Origin: Campylobacter sputorum subsp. sputorum | GTDB taxonomy: Bacteria > Campylobacterota > Campylobacteria > Campylobacterales > Campylobacteraceae | Assembly (NCBI RefSeq): GCF_008245005.1 | Contig: NZ_CP043427.1 | Location: 868,001 to 932,000, forward strand | Direction: 5' to 3' | DNA length: 64,000 nt | In this document: piece after piece, positions 21,196 to 60,157 of the stretch | Position numbering within the stretch: the first letter of the stretch is position 1 | Layout of the letters: each line of letters opens with the position of its first letter | Notes under the pieces: model-generated | Seen by the model: the letters and a program-made list of their open reading frames with translations, nothing else | What the model was told of the DNA's origin: nothing | Databases searched by the model: none | Made by a program: the position numbers and the translations under genes

Positions 21196-23328
21196 TCATT
21201 TTTTGAGTTTATAAATTTTAGTTGATCCGTTTAAAATCACTGGTTCAAATAAATTTTTATCATAATTTTCTAATACAAAAAGTTGAATATACGCACTATC
21301 ATACAAAGTTTTATCTAAAACCAAAATTCTCAAATAATCTTTCATAAAAATCACATAAAAATTGCTATTTGGATCTATGTTAAAATAATTTACATTTAAT
21401 TTTTCGTTTTGATCATAACTTGTTTCAACATATGTATTTACACTATAAGAGTTGCCATTTATCGATAATTTAGTGCCATCATTACTTAATATGACATTGT
21501 TATTTAACATTATTTGATTATCATTTGTAGCTGAAAATCTCTCACTAACCATAAAAAACGGCTGGGCAAATTCTTGCCCTGTTGTCAAATCAAGTCTAGA
21601 AAAATCTAGCACTATCGGATATATGTATATCATTCTATCTGGTAAATAGTAATAAATATCTCTTGTTTGCTTTGGCAGAGTTAAATTTTCATCTTTTAAT
21701 GATAATAAAAACTCATTAACATTTGTAGCATTATAATCTTTCATCATCTTTTTTAAATTTAATCCAAATTTTTCTTCATAATTTTTTTCTGTATATTCAA
21801 CTTCTAATCTTGCCATATTTGCAGAGCTATTTTGATCGCTTCCAAGTGCAAAGCTAACGGCGAAGTTATCACTTCCAAGATGTTTTCCTCCATCTATGAG
21901 AGTTTTTACATCTGAATAATATCTGATCGGATAACCATAATCCCACCAAGAAAGCACATAATCTTCTCTTTTTGCAATATTTTTTAAATTATCCAAACTT
22001 TCAACTTCGCTATGTGTAAAAACAGGAAATACTTTATAATCATAAATATGTTTTAAAGATGGATATAATGCACTAAATGTTACAACAAATAAAAACACAT
22101 AACCTAAAAAACGATCTTTTATATCTATTTTTGCAAAACAATACATAACAAAATAGCCAAAACCAAGAGCCATTACTGGAACTGAGTATATTGTAAATCT
22201 TAAACCACTTTTAAATGACATAAGACCCAAAAACAGAATCGGTAAAGTTAGTAGTAAAATTTTATTGTTTTTTATAAATAAAATATATCCTATAATAGAT
22301 ACCAAAAATACTATTAAATGCCCGCTAATCCTAGTTACAACTGTGTTAAAATCTATCGCAGAACTTTCTCTTATTGTTTGATTTACATTGAAAAATTTAA
22401 AAACAGCATCACCGCTATCTGCAATGTCTCTAAATATATAAAATTTAATGTTAAAAAGTATAGGGTTTAGCCCGCCAAGCCATATAAAGCATATTAACGA
22501 AGCCATAATTAATGCAAATATTACTTTTTTATCAAAAAATCTTTGGTAAAAATAGATTAAAGCATACAAAACAATAACTATAATAAATTTAATTTGTATA
22601 GAAAAGCTTGTGATTGCTAAAATCATAAAAACCATAGCTTCATAGTTTAGTTTTTCGTATCTTTCAAAAACAATGGTATATAAAAAAAACATTCCAATCA
22701 TGGCAAGTAATAGTGAGTAAGAAGATGGATACCACCATCCATATATCGCCATAAAAACCGGAATAAATATTAAATTTACTCTCTCTTTTCTTTGAACAAG
22801 TCTTGTTATGCTCCAAAAAACCATCATAGGAAGAGTGATATTTAGCATATCCGTATCGTAATATCCACTCATTGTTCTATTATAATAACTATTTGCAATA
22901 ATAGCTAGAAGTGCAGCTATAAAACCCGCTTTTGAAGCGTTTAGTTCTTTACCTATAAGTATCAAAGGCACAGCTAAGAGTGGAGATAAAAATGTACTCA
23001 TATACAAAAGTATAGTTTCTAATGAAAATGGCAAAATGTTATATAACCACATGCTAAGCGTCGAAAGAGATGAGCCATAGTAAGAAAGATCGTTTGGTTG
23101 ATGAAAACCAGCTATCATATCTCTTGTGCCCTCAGCAAATGCATATCCGTCATTTGTGCTTATCATAAGCTGATCATTCCATATAAAATGCGGATAAGCA
23201 CTAGCCCAAACTACCCAGTAAAATCTGCAAAATATCCCAAAACAAACAGCTAAAACAATCATTAAAATAGTATGTTTAGAAAGTCTAGGTAATTTATTTA
23301 GAAATTTAGCGAAATTAAAATTTGACAT
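21196..23328 (-). CDS. pglB: PglB oligosaccharyltransferase
   Basis: 710 residues, STT3 family, with about 13 N-terminal membrane helices and a C-terminal periplasmic domain (from about 430). Conserved acidic metal-site motifs are seen: NDGY (about 53-56) and GYYDTDML (about 151-158). The sequon-reading signature WWDYG is at about residues 458-462 (SWWDYGYPIRYY). It transfers the completed heptasaccharide-type glycan en bloc to Asn in D/E-X-N-X-S/T sequons. Length is typical of Campylobacter. This is the functional centre of the locus. Confidence 0.98.
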   Translation of the reverse strand: MSNFNFAKFLNKLPRLSKHTILMIVLAVCFGIFCRFYWVVWASAYPHFIWNDQLMISTNDGYAFAEGTRDMIAGFHQPNDLSYYGSSLSTLSMWLYNILPFSLETILLYMSTFLSPLLAVPLILIGKELNASKAGFIAALLAIIANSYYNRTMSGYYDTDMLNITLPMMVFWSITRLVQRKERVNLIFIPVFMAIYGWWYPSSYSLLLAMIGMFFLYTIVFERYEKLNYEAMVFMILAITSFSIQIKFIIVIVLYALIYFYQRFFDKKVIFALIMASLICFIWLGGLNPILFNIKFYIFRDIADSGDAVFKFFNVNQTIRESSAIDFNTVVTRISGHLIVFLVSIIGYILFIKNNKILLLTLPILFLGLMSFKSGLRFTIYSVPVMALGFGYFVMYCFAKIDIKDRFLGYVFLFVVTFSALYPSLKHIYDYKVFPVFTHSEVESLDNLKNIAKREDYVLSWWDYGYPIRYYSDVKTLIDGGKHLGSDNFAVSFALGSDQNSSANMARLEVEYTEKNYEEKFGLNLKKMMKDYNATNVNEFLLSLKDENLTLPKQTRDIYYYLPDRMIYIYPIVLDFSRLDLTTGQEFAQPFFMVSERFSATNDNQIMLNNNVILSNDGTKLSINGNSYSVNTYVETSYDQNEKLNVNYFNIDPNSNFYVIFMKDYLRILVLDKTLYDSAYIQLFVLENYDKNLFEPVILNGSTKIYKLKK

Positions 23329-23415: not shown

Positions 23416-24543
23416 TTAAGCCATATTTTTATGAGTTTCTTCTATTTTTTGGATTAACTCATTTGTGATTTTAACTTTATCAAAAAACATAGCCCTTGTT
23501 TTAGCTTTTTGCTCATAAGTTTTAACAAAACTCTCATCATCTATTGCTTTTTGCATAGCATTTTGTGTAGAAAGCTCATCATTAACAGGAACCAACACAC
23601 CCCATTCGTCATCGCCTAAAAGCTCCCTTGCACCACTTTTATGATCGCTTGATATGATAAATTTTCCGCACGCAAGTGCTTCTATCAAAGCATTTGAAAA
23701 GCCCTCAAAAAGACTAACAAATACAAAAGCATAACATTTGCTCATATATTTATAAGGATTTTTTTCAAAGCCCATTAAATGCACCCTATTTTCTAAATTT
23801 AACTCTTTTATAAGGTTTTGAAGTTCGTTTTTTAATACACCCTCTCCTAATATAACCAAATCAAATTTATCATTTTTAAGTTTAGAAAAAGCTCTTATTA
23901 AAAGAGAATGATTTTTACCACTATCAAGCCTACCAACGCTTAAAAAAAATGGTTTATTGAGATTTTTATCTATTTCTTCATTTGAAAGTTTGGTTATGGT
24001 TTGCATATCAATAGCATTATATAAAACCCACATTTTGTCTTTTTTTATACCAAAATTTTGCTCTAAATCAATCAAATTTCCAAGTGAATTTGGCATTATT
24101 AAATCAGCTTTTGGATACAAAAATTTAAGCAAAGTTTTACTTATAAATGATTTTAAATTTTTTTCTTTATAAAGCACTGATGGTGTTGAGCATTCGTTAA
24201 ATATCATAGCTCCTTTTAATCCAAAAATTCTAGCAAAACCAGCAATGTAACAAGGGCGATTCATCCATACAAAATGTATGTCAATTCCAAGTTTATTACA
24301 AAGTTTTTTATATTTTAAGCCCAAAAATGGAAGTTTTAATAATTTTTTTATGCCATTTTCAAATGGTGCGGATTTTTCTATAAAATGAGTATTTACTTCA
24401 TTTGGTATATCATAATACAACCTATCATTCATAATAATTAAATGAACTTCGTATTTTTTTATAAGCTCACCTAGCAAATTACTTACAACTCTCTCAGCCC
24501 CACCACCAGCCATAGAATAGATAAAAACAGCTATTTTTTTCAT
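23416..24543 (-). CDS. pglJ: PglJ-like GalNAc transferase
   Basis: GT4 enzyme. The ATG at 24543 (MKKIAVFIYSMAGGGAERVV) overlaps the previous gene's stop as ATGA and has a GGAG site, so it is preferred to an in-frame upstream start. Resemblance to C. jejuni PglJ is visible in the GGAERVV N-terminus, the KLPFL..KYKK segment and ECSTPSV.YK (about 120-130). The donor motif FVSLFEGFSNALIEALACG is at about residues 278-296. It probably adds the next GalNAc to the lipid-linked glycan. Orthology is judged by eye. Confidence 0.75.
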   Translation of the reverse strand: MKKIAVFIYSMAGGGAERVVSNLLGELIKKYEVHLIIMNDRLYYDIPNEVNTHFIEKSAPFENGIKKLLKLPFLGLKYKKLCNKLGIDIHFVWMNRPCYIAGFARIFGLKGAMIFNECSTPSVLYKEKNLKSFISKTLLKFLYPKADLIMPNSLGNLIDLEQNFGIKKDKMWVLYNAIDMQTITKLSNEEIDKNLNKPFFLSVGRLDSGKNHSLLIRAFSKLKNDKFDLVILGEGVLKNELQNLIKELNLENRVHLMGFEKNPYKYMSKCYAFVFVSLFEGFSNALIEALACGKFIISSDHKSGARELLGDDEWGVLVPVNDELSTQNAMQKAIDDESFVKTYEQKAKTRAMFFDKVKITNELIQKIEETHKNMA

Positions 24544-25583
24544 TTTTTCTCCACCAAATTTTCTATAAGGTTTTCCCATTTTTTTGTTATATTTTCAGTT
24601 TTAAAATTTTCTAAAGTAGCTTTTGTATTTTTAATTATTAATTTGCCTAAATCCTCTTTTAGTATAGCCATTTCAAGTTTTTTAGCAAGTTCATCGCTAT
24701 TTCCTATATCAAATAAAAATCCAGTTTTGCCATCTTCTATAAGCTCAACTCCCCCAGCTGTTTTGCTAGAAATCCTAACACATTCATAAAATGCACTTTC
24801 TATTAGCACATTTGAAAGTCCTTCACTATATGAAGCAAGCACAAAAATTTTAGCTTTTTTATAAATTTCTTTTATATCTGTTATATGACCTAAAAATTCG
24901 ATATTTAAGCTTAGTTTTTTAGCTTTTTTTTCTAAAACATCTCTTAAAGAGCCATCTCCTGCTATTAAAATGCGGTAATCTTTGAGTAAGCTTTTATCTG
25001 TTTTTGAAAGAGCGTCAAAAAAAACATCGTAACCTTTTACTTTTTCAAGTCTTGCTACGCTTAAAATTATATTTTCTTTTTCTGATATTTCTGGAAAATC
25101 TGCGAAAAATGGATTATACATTATGACGCAATTTTTTACAAATTTTGAGTAGTAATTTAAATCACTTTTTGTAAGCAGTGTTAATGCATCAACTCGCCTG
25201 TAAGCTACATTTCTTATAAAAGTAAAAATTTTGCTTTGTAAAAATTCATGAGAATTATGCTCTGTTGCTATGAGTTTATAGTTTAGCCCAAAATTTGCTA
25301 TAGCGCAAGCTACGTTTGTCCAGTCTATAAAGCTTATTATGACATCTGGATTTTCATTTTTAAAACATTTTCTTAATTTTATATATTTATCAAATTTACT
25401 ACTATTTTCATAAACATTTAAATTTATAAATTTTACAGACTTATCAAATTTATAAAGTCCATCATCTTTTTCTAAAATAGCTATGCAAACTTCACTATTT
25501 TTTATGAAATAATTTGCTAAAACTTGAAGCACCCGCTCTGCTCCACCATTTCTAAGAGCTGCTATGACAAATAAAATTTTCAT
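24540..25583 (-). CDS. PglH-like GT4 glycosyltransferase (first of two)
   Basis: 347 residues. The GGAERVL N-terminus (about 13-19), SFIDWTNVACAIANFGL (about 83-99), TEHNSHEFL and donor motif LASYSEGLSNVLIESAF (about 257-273) resemble C. jejuni PglH, which adds several GalNAc units processively. A second PglH-like gene at 26536 is its paralogue, so which one carries the polymerase role cannot be told. It overlaps both neighbours by 4 nt. Confidence 0.75.
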   Translation of the reverse strand: MKILFVIAALRNGGAERVLQVLANYFIKNSEVCIAILEKDDGLYKFDKSVKFINLNVYENSSKFDKYIKLRKCFKNENPDVIISFIDWTNVACAIANFGLNYKLIATEHNSHEFLQSKIFTFIRNVAYRRVDALTLLTKSDLNYYSKFVKNCVIMYNPFFADFPEISEKENIILSVARLEKVKGYDVFFDALSKTDKSLLKDYRILIAGDGSLRDVLEKKAKKLSLNIEFLGHITDIKEIYKKAKIFVLASYSEGLSNVLIESAFYECVRISSKTAGGVELIEDGKTGFLFDIGNSDELAKKLEMAILKEDLGKLIIKNTKATLENFKTENITKKWENLIENLVEKK

Positions 25584-27585: not shown

Positions 27586-28325
27586 TATTTTCCCTTTGTG
27601 ATTTTTTTATAATCACTAAATAGCGATATAATGCGAGTTTTGAGTATGTATTTTAAAATTTCATATCTCTTAGCAAGGCTTATTTTAATTTTAGCAAAAT
27701 CTCTCTCGCTTTGTATATTGCTACTACTTAAATCTTTTGGATGTGAAAAAATATCACAAAAACAGAGCTTAATGTCTGCTAAAAGCCTAGTCCAATCATC
27801 AGCAACATACAAATAATCATTTTGTAAATCTAAAATTTTTTTAGCAGCTATTTTATCTAGAGCATAGCAGCAAGCTCTTGTAAAACACCCCTTAGATAGG
27901 TCATTTACTAAAAAAAGTTCATCTTTTATATTTTTTGCAAATGCACTATAGCTATCTTGACCACCGCAAATCATAAGAGAATTTTTAGGTAAAATTTCCA
28001 AAAAACTCTCCACTTTTTCTATCATTTCATCATCGCCAATAATATCATCTTCAAAAATAAGTGCGATATCGTTGTTGCTTTTTAAAAAAGTCTCATAAAC
28101 TAACTTATGACTTAAAGCACACCCTACTTCAGCTGGACTTAAAATTTTACCCGCTTTATAAAATGTCGGTGCTATATTTTTATAATAACTTAAAGCATCA
28201 AATTCACGCCCATCTATAGCTTCTATAAGTTTAAATTTATCATAAAATTTAGGAAATTCATTCTTTAAAAATTCCCTTCTTTTTTTATCTTTTTTTAAAG
28301 ATATGAGATAAATTTCATATTTCAA
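27585..28325 (-). CDS. GT25-family (LPS-type) glycosyltransferase
   Basis: 246 residues. Family 25 signatures are IYLISLKKDKKRREFLK (about 4-20), EAIDGRE (about 38-44), LSPAEVGCALSHKLVYE (about 61-77) and LIFEDDI (about 88-94). GT25 enzymes usually add galactose or glucose to LOS. Its presence inside a pgl operon is unlike C. jejuni and suggests a species-specific sugar on the N-glycan. It overlaps the flippase gene by 4 nt. Confidence 0.85.
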   Translation of the reverse strand: MKYEIYLISLKKDKKRREFLKNEFPKFYDKFKLIEAIDGREFDALSYYKNIAPTFYKAGKILSPAEVGCALSHKLVYETFLKSNNDIALIFEDDIIGDDEMIEKVESFLEILPKNSLMICGGQDSYSAFAKNIKDELFLVNDLSKGCFTRACCYALDKIAAKKILDLQNDYLYVADDWTRLLADIKLCFCDIFSHPKDLSSSNIQSERDFAKIKISLAKRYEILKYILKTRIISLFSDYKKITKGK

Positions 28326-29845
28326 TTCTTTGTCCTTTTAAATTTCATAAAAATTTTATTTAAAATAATGGATTTTTCACTTTTGTTAAACAATATTATG
28401 AAGTTTAAAGTATATCCAAATAATAAAAATATAGTTGTAAATTTGATAAAATCTAACCAAGAATTTATGGAAATAAATTTTTTAAAAAAATAAAAAATAA
28501 TCAAAAAAATAGCAAAAATAGCTATATTTATAAAAATGGGTTTATAAAAAGTAAAGATGTTTAAGCTTAAATTCAAACTCGCATTTATAATATCAAAAAT
28601 CAAAATTCTCAAACTATAAAGCACAGCAGCTACGATAACAATACCAAAAAGCCCAAATTCAGTGTATTTTAAAATCAAAATTTGAGATAAAATCGTGCTA
28701 ATTCCTAGCACTAAATTCGCCATAGCTGGTCTTTTAAGCTTATTTGTAACACTATCAATGTTAAACAAAACAAAAACATAAGAGATAAAAATGATAGGAA
28801 CTAGTGAAATCATACAAAGCTGGTATATTTCTAAAATTTCACTTTTTTCTTTAAAATTTAGCCATAAAGTAAAAAAATCTATCCCCAAAATAACAAAAAT
28901 AACACACGGCGTAGTTATGATAAAAGCTACAACTTTTATGTAAAATTTGGTCTCACTTATAAGGGCGGTAATATTTTTTTTAGAATAAATCTCAACAAGT
29001 TTTGGAAAAAAAGTAGAACAAATAGTAGCGACAAAAGACTCAATTATAAGTGGTCCGGTTTTTGATACAGATAAAATTCCCATAGCTACAGGCGATATAA
29101 AAAGATTACAAATAAGCAGATCAAGTCCTGTTAAAAGCACCCTATTTAGAGCATTAAAACTATTCCATATGCCTGAATTTAGAAGTTTTTTTACCATTTT
29201 AAAACTAAAATTTGAAATGTTAAATTTGATATCTGGGGCGATTTTTTTTGAAATACTAACAGTGCTAAAAAATACAAAAAAACTAGAAATCAAAGCACAA
29301 ATTGCAACATAATATAGTTTTGGTGAAAAAAAATAAAAAAACAATATAATGCTAAGACCAAATATAATGCTAGAAATCGCATTTCTAATAGATATGATAT
29401 AAATTTTATTTTTTACAAAAGCGGTGATTGTAAAGATTGTATTAAAAAGACCTAAGCAAAAATTTAAAAAATATACTAAAAACATAAGCTTTACATCACT
29501 AGTTAAATTTTGTGATATGTTTAAGAAAAATTCCAAATTTAAAGTAAAAATAACGGATAAAATAGCAACCAAAATAGTAAAAAATATATTTACAATAACA
29601 ACAGTTGAAAAGTAGTAATTGGCTCTAATGCTATTTAATTTATGGTATTCTAATGCTACAAAACGCCCAGCTACGGAGTTTATAGCCACACTTAAAATAT
29701 AACCATAACTTACTATGCTATTTGCTAAATTTAAAAAGCCAAAAGCTTCATTTCCCAAGCTTTTTAAAATAAATGGTGTTAAGAAAAAATTTATGCCCAT
29801 TTGGACGATAAAAACTATAATGCTGCTTATTAAATTTATGCCCAT
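28322..29845 (-). CDS. Wzx-like polysaccharide flippase (MOP superfamily)
   Basis: 507 residues with about 12-14 membrane helices and no ATPase domain. The N-terminal layout (FLTPFILKSLGNEAFGFLNLANSI region, about 22-45) is that of Wzx/RfbX exporters. It occupies the place held in C. jejuni by pglK, an ABC-type flippase. It therefore probably flips the undecaprenyl-linked N-glycan to the periplasm for PglB. The substrate is inferred from context. Its start lies 1 bp after the frame-corrected stop of the ecotin gene. Confidence 0.85.
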   Translation of the reverse strand: MGINLISSIIVFIVQMGINFFLTPFILKSLGNEAFGFLNLANSIVSYGYILSVAINSVAGRFVALEYHKLNSIRANYYFSTVVIVNIFFTILVAILSVIFTLNLEFFLNISQNLTSDVKLMFLVYFLNFCLGLFNTIFTITAFVKNKIYIISIRNAISSIIFGLSIILFFYFFSPKLYYVAICALISSFFVFFSTVSISKKIAPDIKFNISNFSFKMVKKLLNSGIWNSFNALNRVLLTGLDLLICNLFISPVAMGILSVSKTGPLIIESFVATICSTFFPKLVEIYSKKNITALISETKFYIKVVAFIITTPCVIFVILGIDFFTLWLNFKEKSEILEIYQLCMISLVPIIFISYVFVLFNIDSVTNKLKRPAMANLVLGISTILSQILILKYTEFGLFGIVIVAAVLYSLRILIFDIINASLNLSLNIFTFYKPIFINIAIFAIFLIIFYFFKKFISINSWLDFIKFTTIFLLFGYTLNFIILFNKSEKSIILNKIFMKFKRTKN

Positions 29846-29846
29846 T

Positions 29847-30234
29847 TTATTTTATAAGTCTGTAAATTTCAAATTTCATACTAAAATCTTTTGAAATATA
29901 AAGATTTTTCTAAATTTGAGTTATAAGGTAGGATTAAATTTGAATCAAATTCTACAAATTTAGTAGTTTTTTTAACATTTCCGTAAGCCATATCGGTGTT
30001 TCCACTTAATTCGTAGTAATCATAACCAATAAGAGTTTTTTTGTCTAAATTTAAATCAGTAAAACAATGATGATTACAATCAAGTTCTAAATTTTTACCA
30101 AATTTAACTTGAATTAGATATTCGTTTTTACTATCTAATTTTAATATCTCTTTTTTTTGCCCATATTTAGGATTTGGGGAAATACCCCAAAACAGCGTCG
30201 TTAAAAATAGGCAAAAAATCAGTAAAATTTTCAT
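29847..30234 (-). pseudogene. eco: Ecotin-family serine protease inhibitor, 1-nt frameshift near the 3' end
   Basis: The ATG at 30234 overlaps the galE stop (ATGA) and has an AAGGAAA ribosome site. A signal peptide (about 1-17) is followed by ecotin-like sequence: SPNPKYGQKKEILKL, LELDCNHH, DKKTLIGYDYY, KKTTKF and LPYNSNL, in the same order as E. coli ecotin. The frame as written stops at 29881. Dropping one base from the A5 run (plus-strand T5, 29905-29909) continues it as MKFEIYRLIK, matching the ecotin C-terminal dimer strand. It then stops at 29847-29849, 1 bp before the flippase ATG. The E. coli Cys87 position is Tyr and the P1-loop is shorter. About 128 residues when restored. Confidence 0.82.
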
Positions 30235-31217
30235 TTTCCTTCCCAAGCAAGAGCTGAAGAGATGATAAGTTTTAAGTCATCTTTCTTTGGTTTCCAGTTA
30301 GTTAATTTTCTTAATTTATCACTATTTGCTATAAGCATAGCAGGATCGCCATCTCTTCTTGGAGCGATTTGGGCCTTAAAATCAACACCGCTTACCTCTT
30401 TAGCAGTATTTACTACTTCTTTTACGCTAAATCCTCTACCATATCCTACATTAAAAATAGAACTTCCATTTTTACTAACATAATCCAAAACGCTCAAATG
30501 TGCATCAGCTAAATCCTCTATATGTATATAATCCCTTATGCAAGTTCCATCTTCTGTATCATAATCATCGCCAAAAATAGACATTTTTTCTCTTTTTCCA
30601 AGTATAGTTTGAGTGGCAACTTTTATAAGGTGTGTTGCATTTGGATAGTTTTGTCCGAGCATTCCATCACTACTTGCACCAGCAACATTAAAATATCTCA
30701 TAATTCCGTATTTAAAATTTGGATTTGCAAGTGCTGTATCTTTTAAAATCCACTCGCTCATCAACTTGCTTCTACCATAAGGATTTATTGGTTTTTGCCC
30801 TGTTTCTTCTGTAACTTCGCCATTTTTTGGCTCTCCATAAACAGCGGCAGTTGAACTAAATAAAAATATATTTACACCGTATTTTAGGCATAAATTTGCT
30901 AAATTTATAACATTGCTAGTATTGTTTTCATAGTATTTAAGTGGCAATTGCGTACTTTCAAAAACCTCTATAAATGCCGCAAAATCAATAATAGCATCAA
31001 ATTTTGACTTGGCAAAGAGTCCATCAAGATCTTCTAAATCTTCTAAGCTCATTTCTATAAACTCAAATTCTCTTATGGTTTTTAGCGAGTTTATGGCTTT
31101 CATTGAACCTTTGCAAAGATTATCTATGATACAAATTTCGTGTTTTGTCTGCTCTAAAAGTGCTTTTGTTACATGAGAGCCTATATATCCAGCTCCACCA
31201 GTTATTAAAATTTTCAT
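30231..31217 (-). CDS. galE: UDP-glucose/UDP-GlcNAc 4-epimerase (GalE/Gne)
   Basis: 328 residues, extended short-chain dehydrogenase. The NAD site is GGAGYIGSHV (about 7-16). The catalytic residues are the Ser/Thr in FSSTAAVYGEP (about 120-130) and Tyr-Lys in NPYGRSKLMSE (about 145-155). In C. jejuni the equivalent Gne makes UDP-GalNAc for the N-glycan, LOS and capsule. Here it heads the pgl operon, so the same role is likely. Specificity for glucose versus GlcNAc cannot be read by eye. Confidence 0.95.
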   Translation of the reverse strand: MKILITGGAGYIGSHVTKALLEQTKHEICIIDNLCKGSMKAINSLKTIREFEFIEMSLEDLEDLDGLFAKSKFDAIIDFAAFIEVFESTQLPLKYYENNTSNVINLANLCLKYGVNIFLFSSTAAVYGEPKNGEVTEETGQKPINPYGRSKLMSEWILKDTALANPNFKYGIMRYFNVAGASSDGMLGQNYPNATHLIKVATQTILGKREKMSIFGDDYDTEDGTCIRDYIHIEDLADAHLSVLDYVSKNGSSIFNVGYGRGFSVKEVVNTAKEVSGVDFKAQIAPRRDGDPAMLIANSDKLRKLTNWKPKKDDLKLIISSALAWEGK

Positions 31218-39923: not shown

Positions 39924-40963
39924 GAATAGTTCATTGTGGAATTTTTAACGAATATGATGATGGAAATTTCTTTTATGGTTTAGAGCGAAAAATCAGCCAC
40001 GGACTTCATCAAAATGGGCATTTTGTTTATGATTTTAGTTATAGAGACTGGGAGAGAAGTTTAAGAATTTTTGGTATTAAAAATAGCGGATTAAAAAATA
40101 TGAATCAAAAACTCATAAATATTTGTAAAAATATAAATGCCGATGTTTTACTTATCACAAAAGCCGAAAAAATTGCAAATGAAACTCTTTTAGAGATAAA
40201 AAAAGCTTTGCCAAATATAAAAATTGCTATGTGGTATGTAGATCACCTTAAAGAAAAAGCTGAATTTTTTGAAAAATTTAAGATAATTGATGTGTTTTTT
40301 TATGCTAATGCTCTTCGTTTAAAAGAATTTTCTACTAAATTTAAAGATACTATTTTTTCATTTTTTCCAAATATTTCAGACCCTGCTTTTGAGGTGGATT
40401 TAAATTTACAAAAGTCAAATGATATTATCTATATCGCAAGGGATTACAAGGAAGATAACCGCTATAAATTTGCTACTTTGCTTGATGAATTTTGTAAAAA
40501 AAATAGCTTAAAACATAAAATTTATGCAAGTTTGGGAAATGAACCTATTTTCGGATTTGATTTTTTTAGAGCTATAAATGAAAGCAAAATCGCTATAAAT
40601 TTTAATAGAGATGATGATTTAGAGTGTGAAAAATCAAATAAACTGCTTGGAGCAAGTGATAGGATGGCACAGTTTTTAGGGTGTGGAGTTTGTGTTTTTA
40701 GCCCAATGATAAAAGGCTTTGAGAAGCTTTATGAGACTGATAAGGAGATTATTTATTTTAAAAATCCAAACGATTGTTTTGATAAAATTTTGCAAATTTT
40801 ACAAAGCAAAGAATGGCAAGAAATCTCAAAAAATGGGCGAGAAAAAACATTTAAAATAGCAAATGCCGCAAGAGTAAGTAAATTTATGCTTGAAGTTTTA
40901 TTTAATATAAGCCAAAATTATGAGTGGAGTGAGTTTGTATATAAAAACGGAGAGAGAATTTGA
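39920..40963 (+). CDS. CgeB-like putative glycosyltransferase
   Basis: 347 residues starting MRIVHCGIFNEYDDGNFF. There is no classical E-x7-E block, but LLGASDRMAQFLGCGVCVFS (about 241-260) and the following FKNPNDCFDKI resemble the C-terminal donor region of CgeB/GT-B spore-type transferases. An N-terminal Rossmann-like half is predicted from the strand-helix pattern. Its place in an unbroken overlapping run of LOS genes supports a transferase role. The family call is tentative. Confidence 0.6.
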   Translation: MRIVHCGIFNEYDDGNFFYGLERKISHGLHQNGHFVYDFSYRDWERSLRIFGIKNSGLKNMNQKLINICKNINADVLLITKAEKIANETLLEIKKALPNIKIAMWYVDHLKEKAEFFEKFKIIDVFFYANALRLKEFSTKFKDTIFSFFPNISDPAFEVDLNLQKSNDIIYIARDYKEDNRYKFATLLDEFCKKNSLKHKIYASLGNEPIFGFDFFRAINESKIAINFNRDDDLECEKSNKLLGASDRMAQFLGCGVCVFSPMIKGFEKLYETDKEIIYFKNPNDCFDKILQILQSKEWQEISKNGREKTFKIANAARVSKFMLEVLFNISQNYEWSEFVYKNGERI

Positions 40964-41944
40964 AAATTTTACAGACACTTCACTGGGTGCAGTTTGCTGG
41001 AACTGAAAAAGTTTGTGTTGATTTATGCAATGAAATGAGTAAAAATAACGAAGTAATTTTGCTTTTAAACAAAGATATTACAGCATATTTAAGCGAAAAT
41101 GTAAAATTTATAGAATTTGACTTTGAAAAAAATTACTATAATCCATTTTTTTATATAAAACCGCAAAACTAATTAAAAAAATTTCACCAGATATAATTCA
41201 TGCACACAATACTAAAGTTATAGAAATTATTCATAATTGCAAAATTTTTTTAAATAAAAAATTCCGCTCATTGCTACAAAACATGATTTAAGGTCTAAAA
41301 AACACTATAAATATGCTGATTTATGTGTTGCCATTTTAGATGATGCTTTTAAAATTTTACCAAAACATACAATTTTAATAGAAAATGGTATGGCTTATAA
41401 AATGCCAAAAATAGTAAAAAAAATAGATAAATTTCATATAATCTCATCTGGTAGGTTAAGTCCTGAAAAAGGTCATCAAGATATTATCAAAGCTTTATCA
41501 AATGTAAAATTTGATTTTTTACTTGATATTTATGGTTGTGGAGAATATGGGCAGGAGTTAAAAAACTTAGTAAATGAGTTAAATTTAAATAATAAAGTAA
41601 GATTTTGTGGCTTTAGTGATGATATTGCAACTGTTTTAGCAAGCTCTGATTTGCAAATTATTGCTTCACATATAGAGCCTTTTGGACTTGTTGCGATTGA
41701 TGGGATTTATTATTCGCCACTTTTAATTTCTACAAATACCGGAATTTGCACTAAAATTTTACCAAATGAGCTTATTTTTAAAACTTCAAATTTAAGTGAA
41801 AAGCTAAATGAAATTTATGAAAATTACGATAAATTTGTGGAAATTTTTTCTAAAATCAAGGCTAAAAAAGATGATTTTAGTATAGAAAAAATGACTGAAA
41901 AATATTTAAAAGCTTATGAAAGCTTAATAAAGGAAATTGGATGA
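40960..41944 (+). pseudogene. GT4 glycosyltransferase with two frameshifts (tandem copy A)
   Basis: Opens at TTG 40960 (MKILQTLHWVQFAGTEKVC) and breaks at IKPQN, stop 41170-41172. The next piece, AKLIKKISPDIIHAHNTK, is in another frame, and the final piece, running PLIATKHD then GLRSP-like SSGRLSPEKGHQD (from about 41390), in a third. One extra T in the T7 run near 41145-41152 and one extra A in the A6 run near 41256-41261 would restore a single protein similar to the products of 38961 and 41941. The donor motif IASHIEPFGLVAIDGIYY is intact. Off-phase or decayed; adjacent copy overlaps by 4 nt. Confidence 0.8.
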
Positions 41945-42985
41945 AAATTATACATATTTTATATCTTACAGAATTTGCCGGAACTGAGAAAGTTTGCGTT
42001 GATTTATGCAATGAAATGAGTAAAAAAATGAAGTGTATTTACTATGTAATAAAAATGGTTTTAATGGCGAAGTTATTACTGATTATTTAGACAAAAGAGT
42101 AAATTTTATAGAAATTCCAACGAATAAAAATCGTTTTAATCCTTTTTATTTATATAAATTAGCAAGAATTATAAAACAAATAAAACCAGATATAATTCAC
42201 ACACGCAATACTAAATTTTTAGAAATTAGCAAATATATGCAGGTATTTTTAAAGCGTAAAATCCCACTTGTTTTTACAAAACACAACTGGTTTTTTAAGA
42301 AAAAAAATGAAACTTGCTGATTTGTGTGTTGGAATTTCTCCAGAAACTTTGTTGCTTTGTAAACAAGCAAATGGGGGGGGGTAGGAACATTTTGATACCA
42401 AATGGAATTTGTTTTAAAACTCCAAATAAAATTTTAAATGAAAGCGATTTTAATATAGTTGGCGTCGGAAGACTTGAAGAGCATAAAAACTTTCAACTTG
42501 CCATTAGGGCTTTAAGTAAAGTTAGGTTTGATTTTAAATTGTATATTTTAGGTCAAGGTGTTTATGAAAATGAGCTTAAAAATTTGATAAAATCTCTAAA
42601 TTTAGAAAATAAAATAAAACTCGTAGGCTATGTAGATAATCCTTGGGATTACATAAATAGTTCAAATTTACAAGTTTTGTTTTCAAGATTAGAGGATTTT
42701 TCTTTGGCTTTGATTGAAGGGATTTATTATGGTAAAATGGTTTTTGCACTCGATACTGCAAATCATAAGGAAGTTTTAGGAGACGATTTTATAGTACAAA
42801 ACGATGATGAAATTGTTGCTAGAAAACTAGATGAAGTTTATGAAAATTATGATTTTTACAAAACTAAATTTGAAAAAATAAAAGAAAATTCACAAAAATA
42901 CAGCATAGAAAATGTAGCAAATAAATATATAAAAGCGTATGAAAGTTTAATTAAAGTAAATTATTTATATTTTAGAAAATGCTAA
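41941..42985 (+). pseudogene. Phase-variable or decayed GT4 glycosyltransferase with a G9 tract (tandem copy B)
   Basis: Begins at ATG 41941 (MKIIHILYLTEFAGTEKVC) with AAGGAAAT upstream. Three breaks separate it into frames: A7 at 42022-42028 (A8 would restore), A8 at 42300-42307 (A7 would restore) and G9 at 42373-42381 (G8 would restore the frame as NGGGRNILIPNG). When joined it runs through NPFYLYKLARIIKQIKPDIIHTRNTK, KHNW, GVGRLEEHKNFQLA and LFSRLEDFSLALIEGIYY. The G run is the kind of contingency tract that varies in Campylobacter surface genes. Confidence 0.82.
42373..42381 (+). repeat. Poly-G contingency tract (G9)
   Basis: Nine consecutive G residues in a region otherwise almost free of long G runs. 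It lies inside glycosyltransferase copy B at the linker between the GT-B halves. Slipped-strand changes here would switch the downstream half in and out of frame. Confidence 0.9.
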
Positions 42986-58906: not shown

Positions 58907-60157
58907 ATCTCCAAATCACTTATTATTTTTCCATCATCATTCATATTTTTTAACTCAAATTCTTTTATGTTTTTTGCCATATCTTTTAACTCTATATTTG
59001 CTTTTTGCAAATCTTTTTCATTTTTGATTTTACTTAACTCTTTTTGTTTTTTTGTGAAATCATCTTTTAGTTTTTCATAAATGATCTCTTTTTTTAAAAT
59101 CTCTTTTTTGATAGGATCTATCTCATTTTTTAGTGCATATTGTTCTACTTCAGAAAGCGGCACTTTTTTGCCATTTATCTTTAAAGCAGTGCTATCTTTT
59201 TTGCCATATAACTCATCACTCCAAGTCTTTTTAGTGTTTTGAAGTGTTATATCATCATCTTTTAGTTTCATATCTGCTAAAAAGTTATTTTTAACATCAT
59301 CAAAAGTTTTTATGTTTTCAAAGTCATTTTTCAATAAAACTTCATTTGTAGCTTTTTGTGTTACAATATTTTTATCGGAATGCTGTAATAAATCGCCTCC
59401 CATAGAAGCTTTGCTTTGAGTGGTTGCAGGAAGTGGCGTCCCTGTCAGCATTTCGTTATTTCTGCGTTGTAATCTCTCTAAATCTTTAGTTTTATTTTTA
59501 TTTGCGTGTATTATCTCACCGTTTTCTTTTTTTATCCCAATGTTTGCAAATTTATCATCTATATTTTTCCCCATTAAAGCAACTTCATCATCATAATTTT
59601 TAAAAAAATGCGTAGGATTGTCTTTAATTTCTTTTATCACTCTAAAAACATCTGCTTCGCTTTTAAACATTTCGGGGTGTTTTTTGGCTAGTTTTGTTAA
59701 ATTTTCCACCCATTCACCGGGTAAAATCTCTGAAAGTTTGTTTATCCATTCGTCGGGCGTAAATGTTTGCATAATATTTCTTTGTGGTTCTTGTGAGGCT
59801 TCTCTCATCACAAAGTTATCGTCGCTTATATCATCTATAATCTGTGATTTAGTTTTTTGTGGTATACTTTCATTAGTAGCTAGGGAATGTGCTTTTGCAC
59901 CAGCCCCGTCAGGGTAGGTATTTTTATCTAGATCTGAGTGTAGAGCAGGGGGCAACTCTACCCCTAGCTCCCTAGCTTTACTGCCATCTTTCATCACAAA
60001 GTTATCACCGTTTATATCTTCTCCTGCCACATCACTAAATTCACTTTGTTTTGATACCATCTGCTCCCCTCTAGCCCTGGCATCGCTAAGCTCATCGCTA
60101 TTAATGGCTTTAGATCCTATATAGAAACCCCCCCCCCTTTTTTTTTGGTATAAACAT
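58900..60157 (-). pseudogene. Prophage-type protein with a 5' A9G10 contingency tract, off-phase
   Basis: The clear frame (58900-60060) gives 386 residues. The open frame extends upstream without stops through FYIGSKAINSDELSD to a plus-strand C10T9 run (60128-60146). An ATG at 60157 (MFIPKKKGGG) enters the same frame only if the G run is 9 or 12; with the observed G10 it stops just after the tract. Internal repeat: NGDNFVMKDGSKA and SDDNFVMREASQE. The middle (about 115-190) with VFRVIKEIKDNPTHFF and ENGEIIHANK resembles phage-associated PBECR-type nuclease domains; this is tentative. C-terminal coiled coil. Confidence 0.55.
60128..60146 (-). repeat. Poly-A9/poly-G10 tract (minus strand)
   Basis: Plus strand C10 (60128-60137) followed by T9 (60138-60146). 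It lies 11 nt after the candidate ATG at 60157, the typical place for a translational contingency tract. Confidence 0.85.

What the first reader, a model, noticed from the sequence alone, without database searches (positions are those of the whole stretch)
29847..30246. Ecotin-family protease inhibitor gene inside the N-glycosylation operon, carrying a 1-nt frameshift
The sequence shows an ecotin-like protein (LELDCNHH, GYDYY, KKTTKF, LPYNSNL in order) between galE and the flippase gene. The reading frame ends early, but removing one base from the A5 run restores MKFEIYRLIK, which corresponds to the ecotin dimerisation strand. It also places the stop 1 bp before the flippase ATG. That gene fit argues the frameshift is recent or switchable. 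An ecotin in a pgl operon is unexpected. The loss of the Cys87 equivalent and the short reactive loop suggest changed specificity. It could protect PglB or glycoproteins from host proteases.
Basis: partly seen in the sequence, partly recalled or inferred. Interest (0 to 1): 0.75.

Follow-up and report, generated by a model that had tools for sequence, protein, structure and literature searches.

The report
Decaying ecotin gene in glycosylation cluster
A gene for a known bacterial protease inhibitor (ecotin) sits, as already published for related Campylobacter, inside the protein-glycosylation gene cluster, but in this genome it has lost its active loop and its tail and is most likely dying.

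Summary
The 117-residue frame at 29881-30234 (-) matches Pfam Ecotin (52.6 bits, cut-off 22.2), between galE and a flippase gene of an N-glycosylation (pgl) cluster, and its frame ends early. The one other held genome of its genus has an uninterrupted 137-residue ecotin at the same place, whose last residues match what the window carries out of frame. The pgl location is not new: Thomas et al. 2020 (PMC7773321) report ecotin between gne and pglK in C. rectus and upstream of pgl in C. showae and C. curvus. The window copy is decayed beyond the frame loss: its loop is 5 codons shorter and lacks the T-x-M-x-C motif with Cys87 that 29 of 29 relatives read keep. It is 71% identical to its sister, 16 neighbouring genes 82-98%. 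dN/dS is 0.37, against 0.04-0.30 for those genes and 0.12-0.20 for ecotin in three other genome pairs. Best reading: an ecotin gene being lost, probably in Campylobacter sputorum bv. sputorum. Retained activity of changed specificity is possible but less likely. 'Switchable' is unsupported: 666 five-base A/T runs occur in the window.

The parts
29881..30234 (-). ecotin-family gene, 117 codons in frame (ATG at 30234; a TTG start at 30246 would add 4 residues)
   Evidence: Pfam Ecotin 52.6 bits; solved ecotins, best E 7.6e-6
29974..30000 (-). remnant of the primary reactive-site loop (residues 79-87, NTDMAYGNV); 5 codons fewer than the sister; Cys87 equivalent gone
30076..30078 (-). codon of the Cys50 equivalent (retained, without its partner Cys87)
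29847..29880 (-). out-of-frame remainder corresponding to the C-terminal (dimerisation) arm of the sister's ecotin
   Evidence: 3 of the last 51 bases to the sister's stop differ (those 51 bases begin 17 bases inside the window frame); alignment
30231..31217 (-). galE/gne (UDP-glucose 4-epimerase family), stop overlaps the ecotin ATG
   Evidence: TIGR01179 454.5 bits, cut-off 262.3
28322..29845 (-). Wzx-like polysaccharide flippase gene downstream
   Evidence: PF01943 28.0 bits, just under its cut-off of 28.2; no NCBIfam match; 97.6% identical in the sister
21196..23328 (-). pglB, oligosaccharyltransferase
   Evidence: three STT3/PglB Pfam domains over cut-off; NF050801 833.9 bits, below its cut-off of 1300

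Best explanation
It is the orthologue of the published pgl-linked Campylobacter ecotin, a periplasmic inhibitor of host-type serine proteases, in a lineage that is losing it. First the reactive loop was remodelled and shortened in frame and Cys87 was lost (older, frame still open); later the frame was lost near the end, removing the C-terminal arm that makes the dimer. Shown: homology, location, loop and tail changes, intact sister copy, raised dN/dS. Inferred: order of events, loss of inhibitory function, species (Campylobacter sputorum bv. sputorum; sister = subsp. bovis).
For: Intact sister copy at the identical place. Ecotin pair 71% identical; the 16 neighbouring genes compared are 82-98%. 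dN/dS 0.37 against 0.04-0.30 in those 16; 0.39 without the tail. Control: intact ecotins in three other genome pairs have 0.115, 0.154 and 0.198. Where window and sister differ, 19 of 29 sites are derived in the window, 5 in the sister, 5 unclear; without the tail 15, 5 and 3, p = 0.04. T-x-M-x-C in 29 of 30 ecotins read, the window being the exception. C-terminal arms hold the dimer, and a C-terminally shortened monomer with the native P1 no longer measurably inhibits MASP-2 or MASP-3 (PMC9136129, passages).
Against: Both internal length differences from the sister (9 and 15 bases) are in frame, so the frame was kept open for part of the time. dN/dS is still well under 1, though it is a pairwise average over both lineages; without loop and tail it is 0.32, only just above the highest of the 16 neighbours (0.296). 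Only 3 of the last 51 bases differ. A shortened monomeric ecotin keeps some activity on MASP-1. One genome only; no protein assay.
Confidence: 0.7

Rival explanations
1. A working inhibitor of changed specificity: the shortened loop without Cys87 is an adaptation to another protease (in the protein alignment Asp stands at P1), and the protein acts without the C-terminal arm.
For: In-frame indels. Amino-acid changes are concentrated in the loop: 6 of 9 loop codons against 17 of 100 others, p = 0.003, loop chosen after seeing the data. Most of the fold is still encoded.
Against: Loss of a cysteine kept by 29 of 29 relatives read leaves the Cys50 equivalent without that partner. At DNA level MAFFT places the deletion over the P1 region itself, so P1 = Asp is not secure. 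The C-terminal arm is out of frame.
Confidence: 0.12
2. The frame loss is an error of this assembly; the real gene is uninterrupted, with an altered loop.
For: One single-contig genome only; the tail is nearly unchanged (3 of 51 bases).
Against: The 16 neighbouring genes compared are matched over nearly their whole length; the loop changes and raised dN/dS do not depend on the frame loss.
Confidence: 0.13
3. Phase-variable ecotin, switched by slippage.
Against: 666 five-base A/T runs in the window; contingency-type tracts G9 and C10 lie elsewhere; no isolate data.
Confidence: 0.03

Closest known systems
pgl-linked ecotins of Campylobacter rectus, C. showae and C. curvus (Thomas et al. 2020, PMC7773321)
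   Same: Ecotin family; in C. rectus between gne and pglK, in all three upstream of the pgl operon as the paper puts it
   Different: The paper reports Cys50 and Cys87 conserved in the Campylobacter homologs it aligned, and inhibition of trypsin, factor Xa and neutrophil elastase by the C. rectus and C. showae proteins; the window copy lacks Cys87, part of the loop and the tail in frame
Ecotin of the sister genome G132 (L011:1450-1863), probably C. sputorum subsp. bovis
   Same: Same position, overlapping the galE stop and ending one base before the flippase gene; 71% identical
   Different: 137 residues, uninterrupted, loop STLMDC with Cys87, C-terminal arm in frame
Escherichia coli ecotin (PF03974; solved structures such as 1ecz, 7pqo)
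   Same: Core motifs around LDCNHH, GYDYY and the KFV strand align
   Different: E. coli ecotin has the Cys50-Cys87 disulfide, P1 Met84 and a dimer-forming C-terminal arm (PMC7773321, PMC9136129)

Membership tests
Ecotin (PF03974) | Match over the curated Pfam cut-off | tested here: met
   52.6 bits against 22.2
Ecotin (PF03974) | NCBIfam equivalog NF002987 (PRK03719) cut-off | tested here: not met
   49.3 bits against 162; the intact sister protein was not scanned against it, so this may say nothing about the damage
Ecotin (PF03974) | Cys50-Cys87 pair | tested here: not met
   Cys50 equivalent kept, Cys87 replaced; Cys87 present in 29 of 29 relatives read
Ecotin (PF03974) | Reactive-site loop T-x-M-x-C of normal length | tested here: not met
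   Five codons fewer than the sister, motif absent
Ecotin (PF03974) | C-terminal dimerisation arm in frame | tested here: not met
   Frame ends at 29881; profile match stops at 109 of 122
Ecotin (PF03974) | Signal peptide / periplasmic location | tested here: inconclusive
   Hydrophobic N-terminus seen in the sequence; no predictor was run
Ecotin (PF03974) | Serine-protease inhibition | not testable with these tools
   needs an assay
pgl-linked ecotin locus | Lies among N-glycosylation genes next to gne/galE | tested here: met
   galE, ecotin, flippase, glycosyltransferases, pglB in one run; same order in the sister

The most novel reading that the evidence does not exclude
A pgl-linked ecotin that has been re-tooled: loop shortened in frame, disulfide abandoned, P1 changed to an acidic residue and dimerisation given up, so that a monomer binds a protease with acidic P1 preference or has taken a role other than protease inhibition.
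Probability: 0.06. Interest if true: 0.55.

Novelty: new member of a known kind. Interest (0 to 1): 0.2.

Why it matters
It suggests that the second line of protease defence proposed for oral Campylobacter (ecotin beside the N-glycan genes, PMC7773321) is being lost in one lineage while its close sister keeps it. That gives a natural comparison for asking which hosts or sites require ecotin. It also corrects the impression that a pgl-linked ecotin is new.

Tried and rejected
Rejected: programmed or phase-variable recoding (a short run of a kind that occurs 666 times in the window). Rejected: N-glycosylation of the ecotin itself: no D/E-x-N-x-S/T sequon in the window or sister ecotin (sequon recalled). 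Led nowhere: genome-contig scan with the window ecotin, 99 pattern matches and no relative confirmed; scan with PglB, 3 loci (Campylobacter gastrosuis, a Helicobacteraceae and a Sulfurovum MAG), which name neither genome of this genus, so species names rest on inference. Urease family search: sub-cut-off matches only, in both genomes. A wider ecotin search drew 398 genomes of the order: 14 of 398 positive, 9 of them already known, 5 in another family of the order, not followed. No structure was predicted: the relatives came from the genome search, which is not on the fold tool's list of permitted sources, and a fold of the window frame alone was not run.

Paper searches: ecotin + Campylobacter, 11 papers; ecotin + pgl + N-glycosylation, 1 paper; ecotin + pseudogene, 5 papers, none on Campylobacter by title or start of abstract; Campylobacter sputorum + genome, 48 papers, 10 listed; sputorum + RM3237, 3 papers; sputorum + N-glycan + PglB, 1 paper; ecotin + dimer + monomeric + C-terminal, 14 papers, 8 listed. 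In these listings, and in the passages opened, I saw no account of this ecotin in C. sputorum; the C. sputorum subsp. bovis paper holds neither 'ecotin' nor 'glycosylation' in its main text. The ecotin review PMC9904509 and the Salmonella ecotin paper PMC11977995 were seen as listings only. PMC11019964 was opened for one passage, an entry of its reference list.

Dropped before counts: 8 of the 38 ecotin-positive family genomes had no locus and were not read. Of the 30 ecotins read, 13 (L018-L030) are very alike, so 29 of 29 overstates independence. L004 and L010 were read from a non-ATG point because my script found no near ATG. The first extraction script misread minus-strand loci and was replaced (then 22). 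One search took frames of 90 residues or more and printed only pairs of 60% identity or more; only pairs of at least 50% identity aligned over 80% of the longer protein, and one of its genes had no measurable dS. The loop of 9 codons was chosen after seeing the alignment.

Full report
What is there. On the minus strand a frame of 117 codons (29881-30234) lies between galE (30231-31217) and a Wzx-like flippase gene (28322-29845). It matches Pfam Ecotin at 52.6 bits, cut-off 22.2, profile positions 6-109 of 122, and is the only match in the genome at E <= 0.001. Eleven distinct solved ecotin sequences are matched, best E 7.6e-6. Its ATG overlaps the galE stop as ATGA, and its stop lies 35 bases before the flippase start. 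Downstream follow several glycosyltransferase-type genes, pglB and a gene of the undecaprenyl-phosphate sugar transferase kind (pglC-like is my label; TIGR03025 244.6 bits, below its cut-off of 295.55).

Which organism. Names are withheld, so this is inference. The genus has two held genomes. Their 16S genes are 1744 (window genome) and 1742 (sister G132) bases long, three copies each. PMC12453555 (passages read) reports 1742-base 16S genes with an intervening sequence for six C. sputorum subsp. bovis strains, catalase-positive and without urease. It describes bv. faecalis as catalase-positive, urease-negative and bv. paraureolyticus as catalase-negative, urease-positive; a table column that I take for bv. 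sputorum (its header was not in the passage) is negative for both. G132 has a catalase gene and the window genome has none; neither has a urease match over the cut-off. Identity between the two genomes over the long matches of this region is 90-97%, too low for two of the old biovars (ANI about 98-99%) and compatible with bovis against a biovar (94.5-95.5%). So the window is probably C. sputorum bv. sputorum and G132 subsp. bovis.

Comparison with the sister. G132 has an uninterrupted 137-residue ecotin in the same place. The two ecotins are 71% identical. Of 39 sister frames (90 residues or more, 40 kb), each with a partner of at least 60% identity in the window, only one pair (63.6%, in the neighbouring glycosyltransferase locus) is less alike, and the 16 genes around ecotin compared are 82-98% identical. 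Ecotin has dN/dS 0.37, the 16 neighbours 0.04-0.30. Without the tail it is 0.39, without tail and loop 0.32, the last only just above the highest neighbour. As a control, intact ecotins in three other genome pairs, 74-88% identical, have 0.115, 0.154 and 0.198 (synonymous sites of many neighbouring genes in two of these pairs are near saturation). In two of those three pairs ecotin is the highest of the genes with a value, so the family runs somewhat fast, but not at the window's rate. Using 12 relatives to polarise, 19 of 29 differing sites are changed on the window side, 5 on the sister side and 5 are unclear. Without the tail the counts are 15, 5 and 3, p = 0.04. The sequence has thus been changing faster in the window lineage.

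What was lost. Ecotin was found in 38 of 153 genomes of the family and 30 of these were read, the window included. T-x-M-x-C, holding P1 and Cys87, is present in 29 of the 30; the exception is the window. Thirteen of the 29 (L018-L030) are very alike. The window loop is 5 codons shorter than the sister's. Protein alignment gives T-D-M-A-Y (Asp at P1, Tyr for Cys87); DNA alignment places the deletion over the P1 region itself, so the P1 residue is not secure. The amino-acid changes are concentrated in the loop (6 of 9 codons against 17 of 100, p = 0.003, region chosen post hoc). The frame then ends before the C-terminal arm. The bases of the arm are still there in another frame: 3 of the last 51 differ from the sister. 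With an assumed neutral divergence of 0.20, 0.18, 0.15 or 0.12 per site the chance of 3 or fewer is 0.005, 0.01, 0.04 or 0.12, so a recent frame loss is favoured but not proven, and constraint from the flippase start could contribute.

Mechanism. Ecotin dimers are held mainly by the C-terminal arms, and each dimer grips proteases with a primary loop and a secondary site. A C-terminally shortened monomer with the native P1 no longer measurably inhibits MASP-2 or MASP-3, while inhibition of MASP-1 falls but remains measurable (PMC9136129, passages). A protein that has lost loop length, the disulfide partner and the arm is unlikely to inhibit (inference). The two in-frame length differences (9 and 15 bases) show that the frame was kept open for a time, so relaxed or altered selection probably came first and frame loss later. 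Changed specificity is kept as a rival at 0.12.

What is already known. Thomas et al. 2020 (PMC7773321; abstract, passages, Results section 23 and Discussion read) report ecotin between gne and pglK in C. rectus, and upstream of the pgl operon in C. rectus, C. showae and C. curvus, with inhibition of trypsin, factor Xa and neutrophil elastase by the C. rectus and C. showae proteins but not of HtrA or DegP, and partial rescue of a C. jejuni pglB mutant. So the location and a protective role are published. They say the pgl linkage occurs only in those three species of the seven in which they found ecotin. I laid out 18 of the 37 other ecotin-bearing genomes (19 stretches): galE lies within about 2.5 kb of ecotin in 12 and a pgl-type flippase in 2 more, 14 of 18 in all; in 4 of 18 (L040, L044, L046, L051) neither was found, though L051 has a pgl-like glycosyltransferase about 5 kb away.

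Switching. The window has 666 A or T runs of exactly five, so such a run is no contingency tract; G9 at 42373 and C10 at 60128 are of that type (type recalled). Without other isolates, assembly error at the frame loss cannot be excluded (0.13), but it would not explain the loop or the substitution rate.

Verdict. A real gene of an already understood kind, in a decaying copy. Interest is low, mainly as a natural loss beside an intact sister.

Noticed in passing
window 40960-41944 (+): A glycosyltransferase gene of the neighbouring sugar locus is broken: its pieces lie in different frames with stops between, and the stretch matches the sister genome poorly.
   Followed up: partly
window 42373-42381 and 60128-60137: G9 and C10 tracts, the kind used for phase variation in Campylobacter (recalled); the first lies within the 42314-42985 frame.
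   Followed up: no
   Followed up: partly
G000 and G132, 16S genes (L059-L064): 16S genes of 1744 and 1742 bases, consistent with the intervening sequence described for C. sputorum (PMC12453555).
   Followed up: partly
window 28322-29845 (-): The flippase gene beside ecotin is Wzx-like (PF01943 just under cut-off), unlike the ABC-type PglK of C. jejuni (recalled).
   Followed up: no
window 24540-25583 (-): Glycosyltransferase-type gene with the highest dN/dS (0.296) of the 16 neighbours compared with the sister.
   Followed up: no
G341, G373, G454, G469, G494 (same order, another family): Five further ecotin-bearing genomes of one genus outside this family; context not examined.
   Followed up: no
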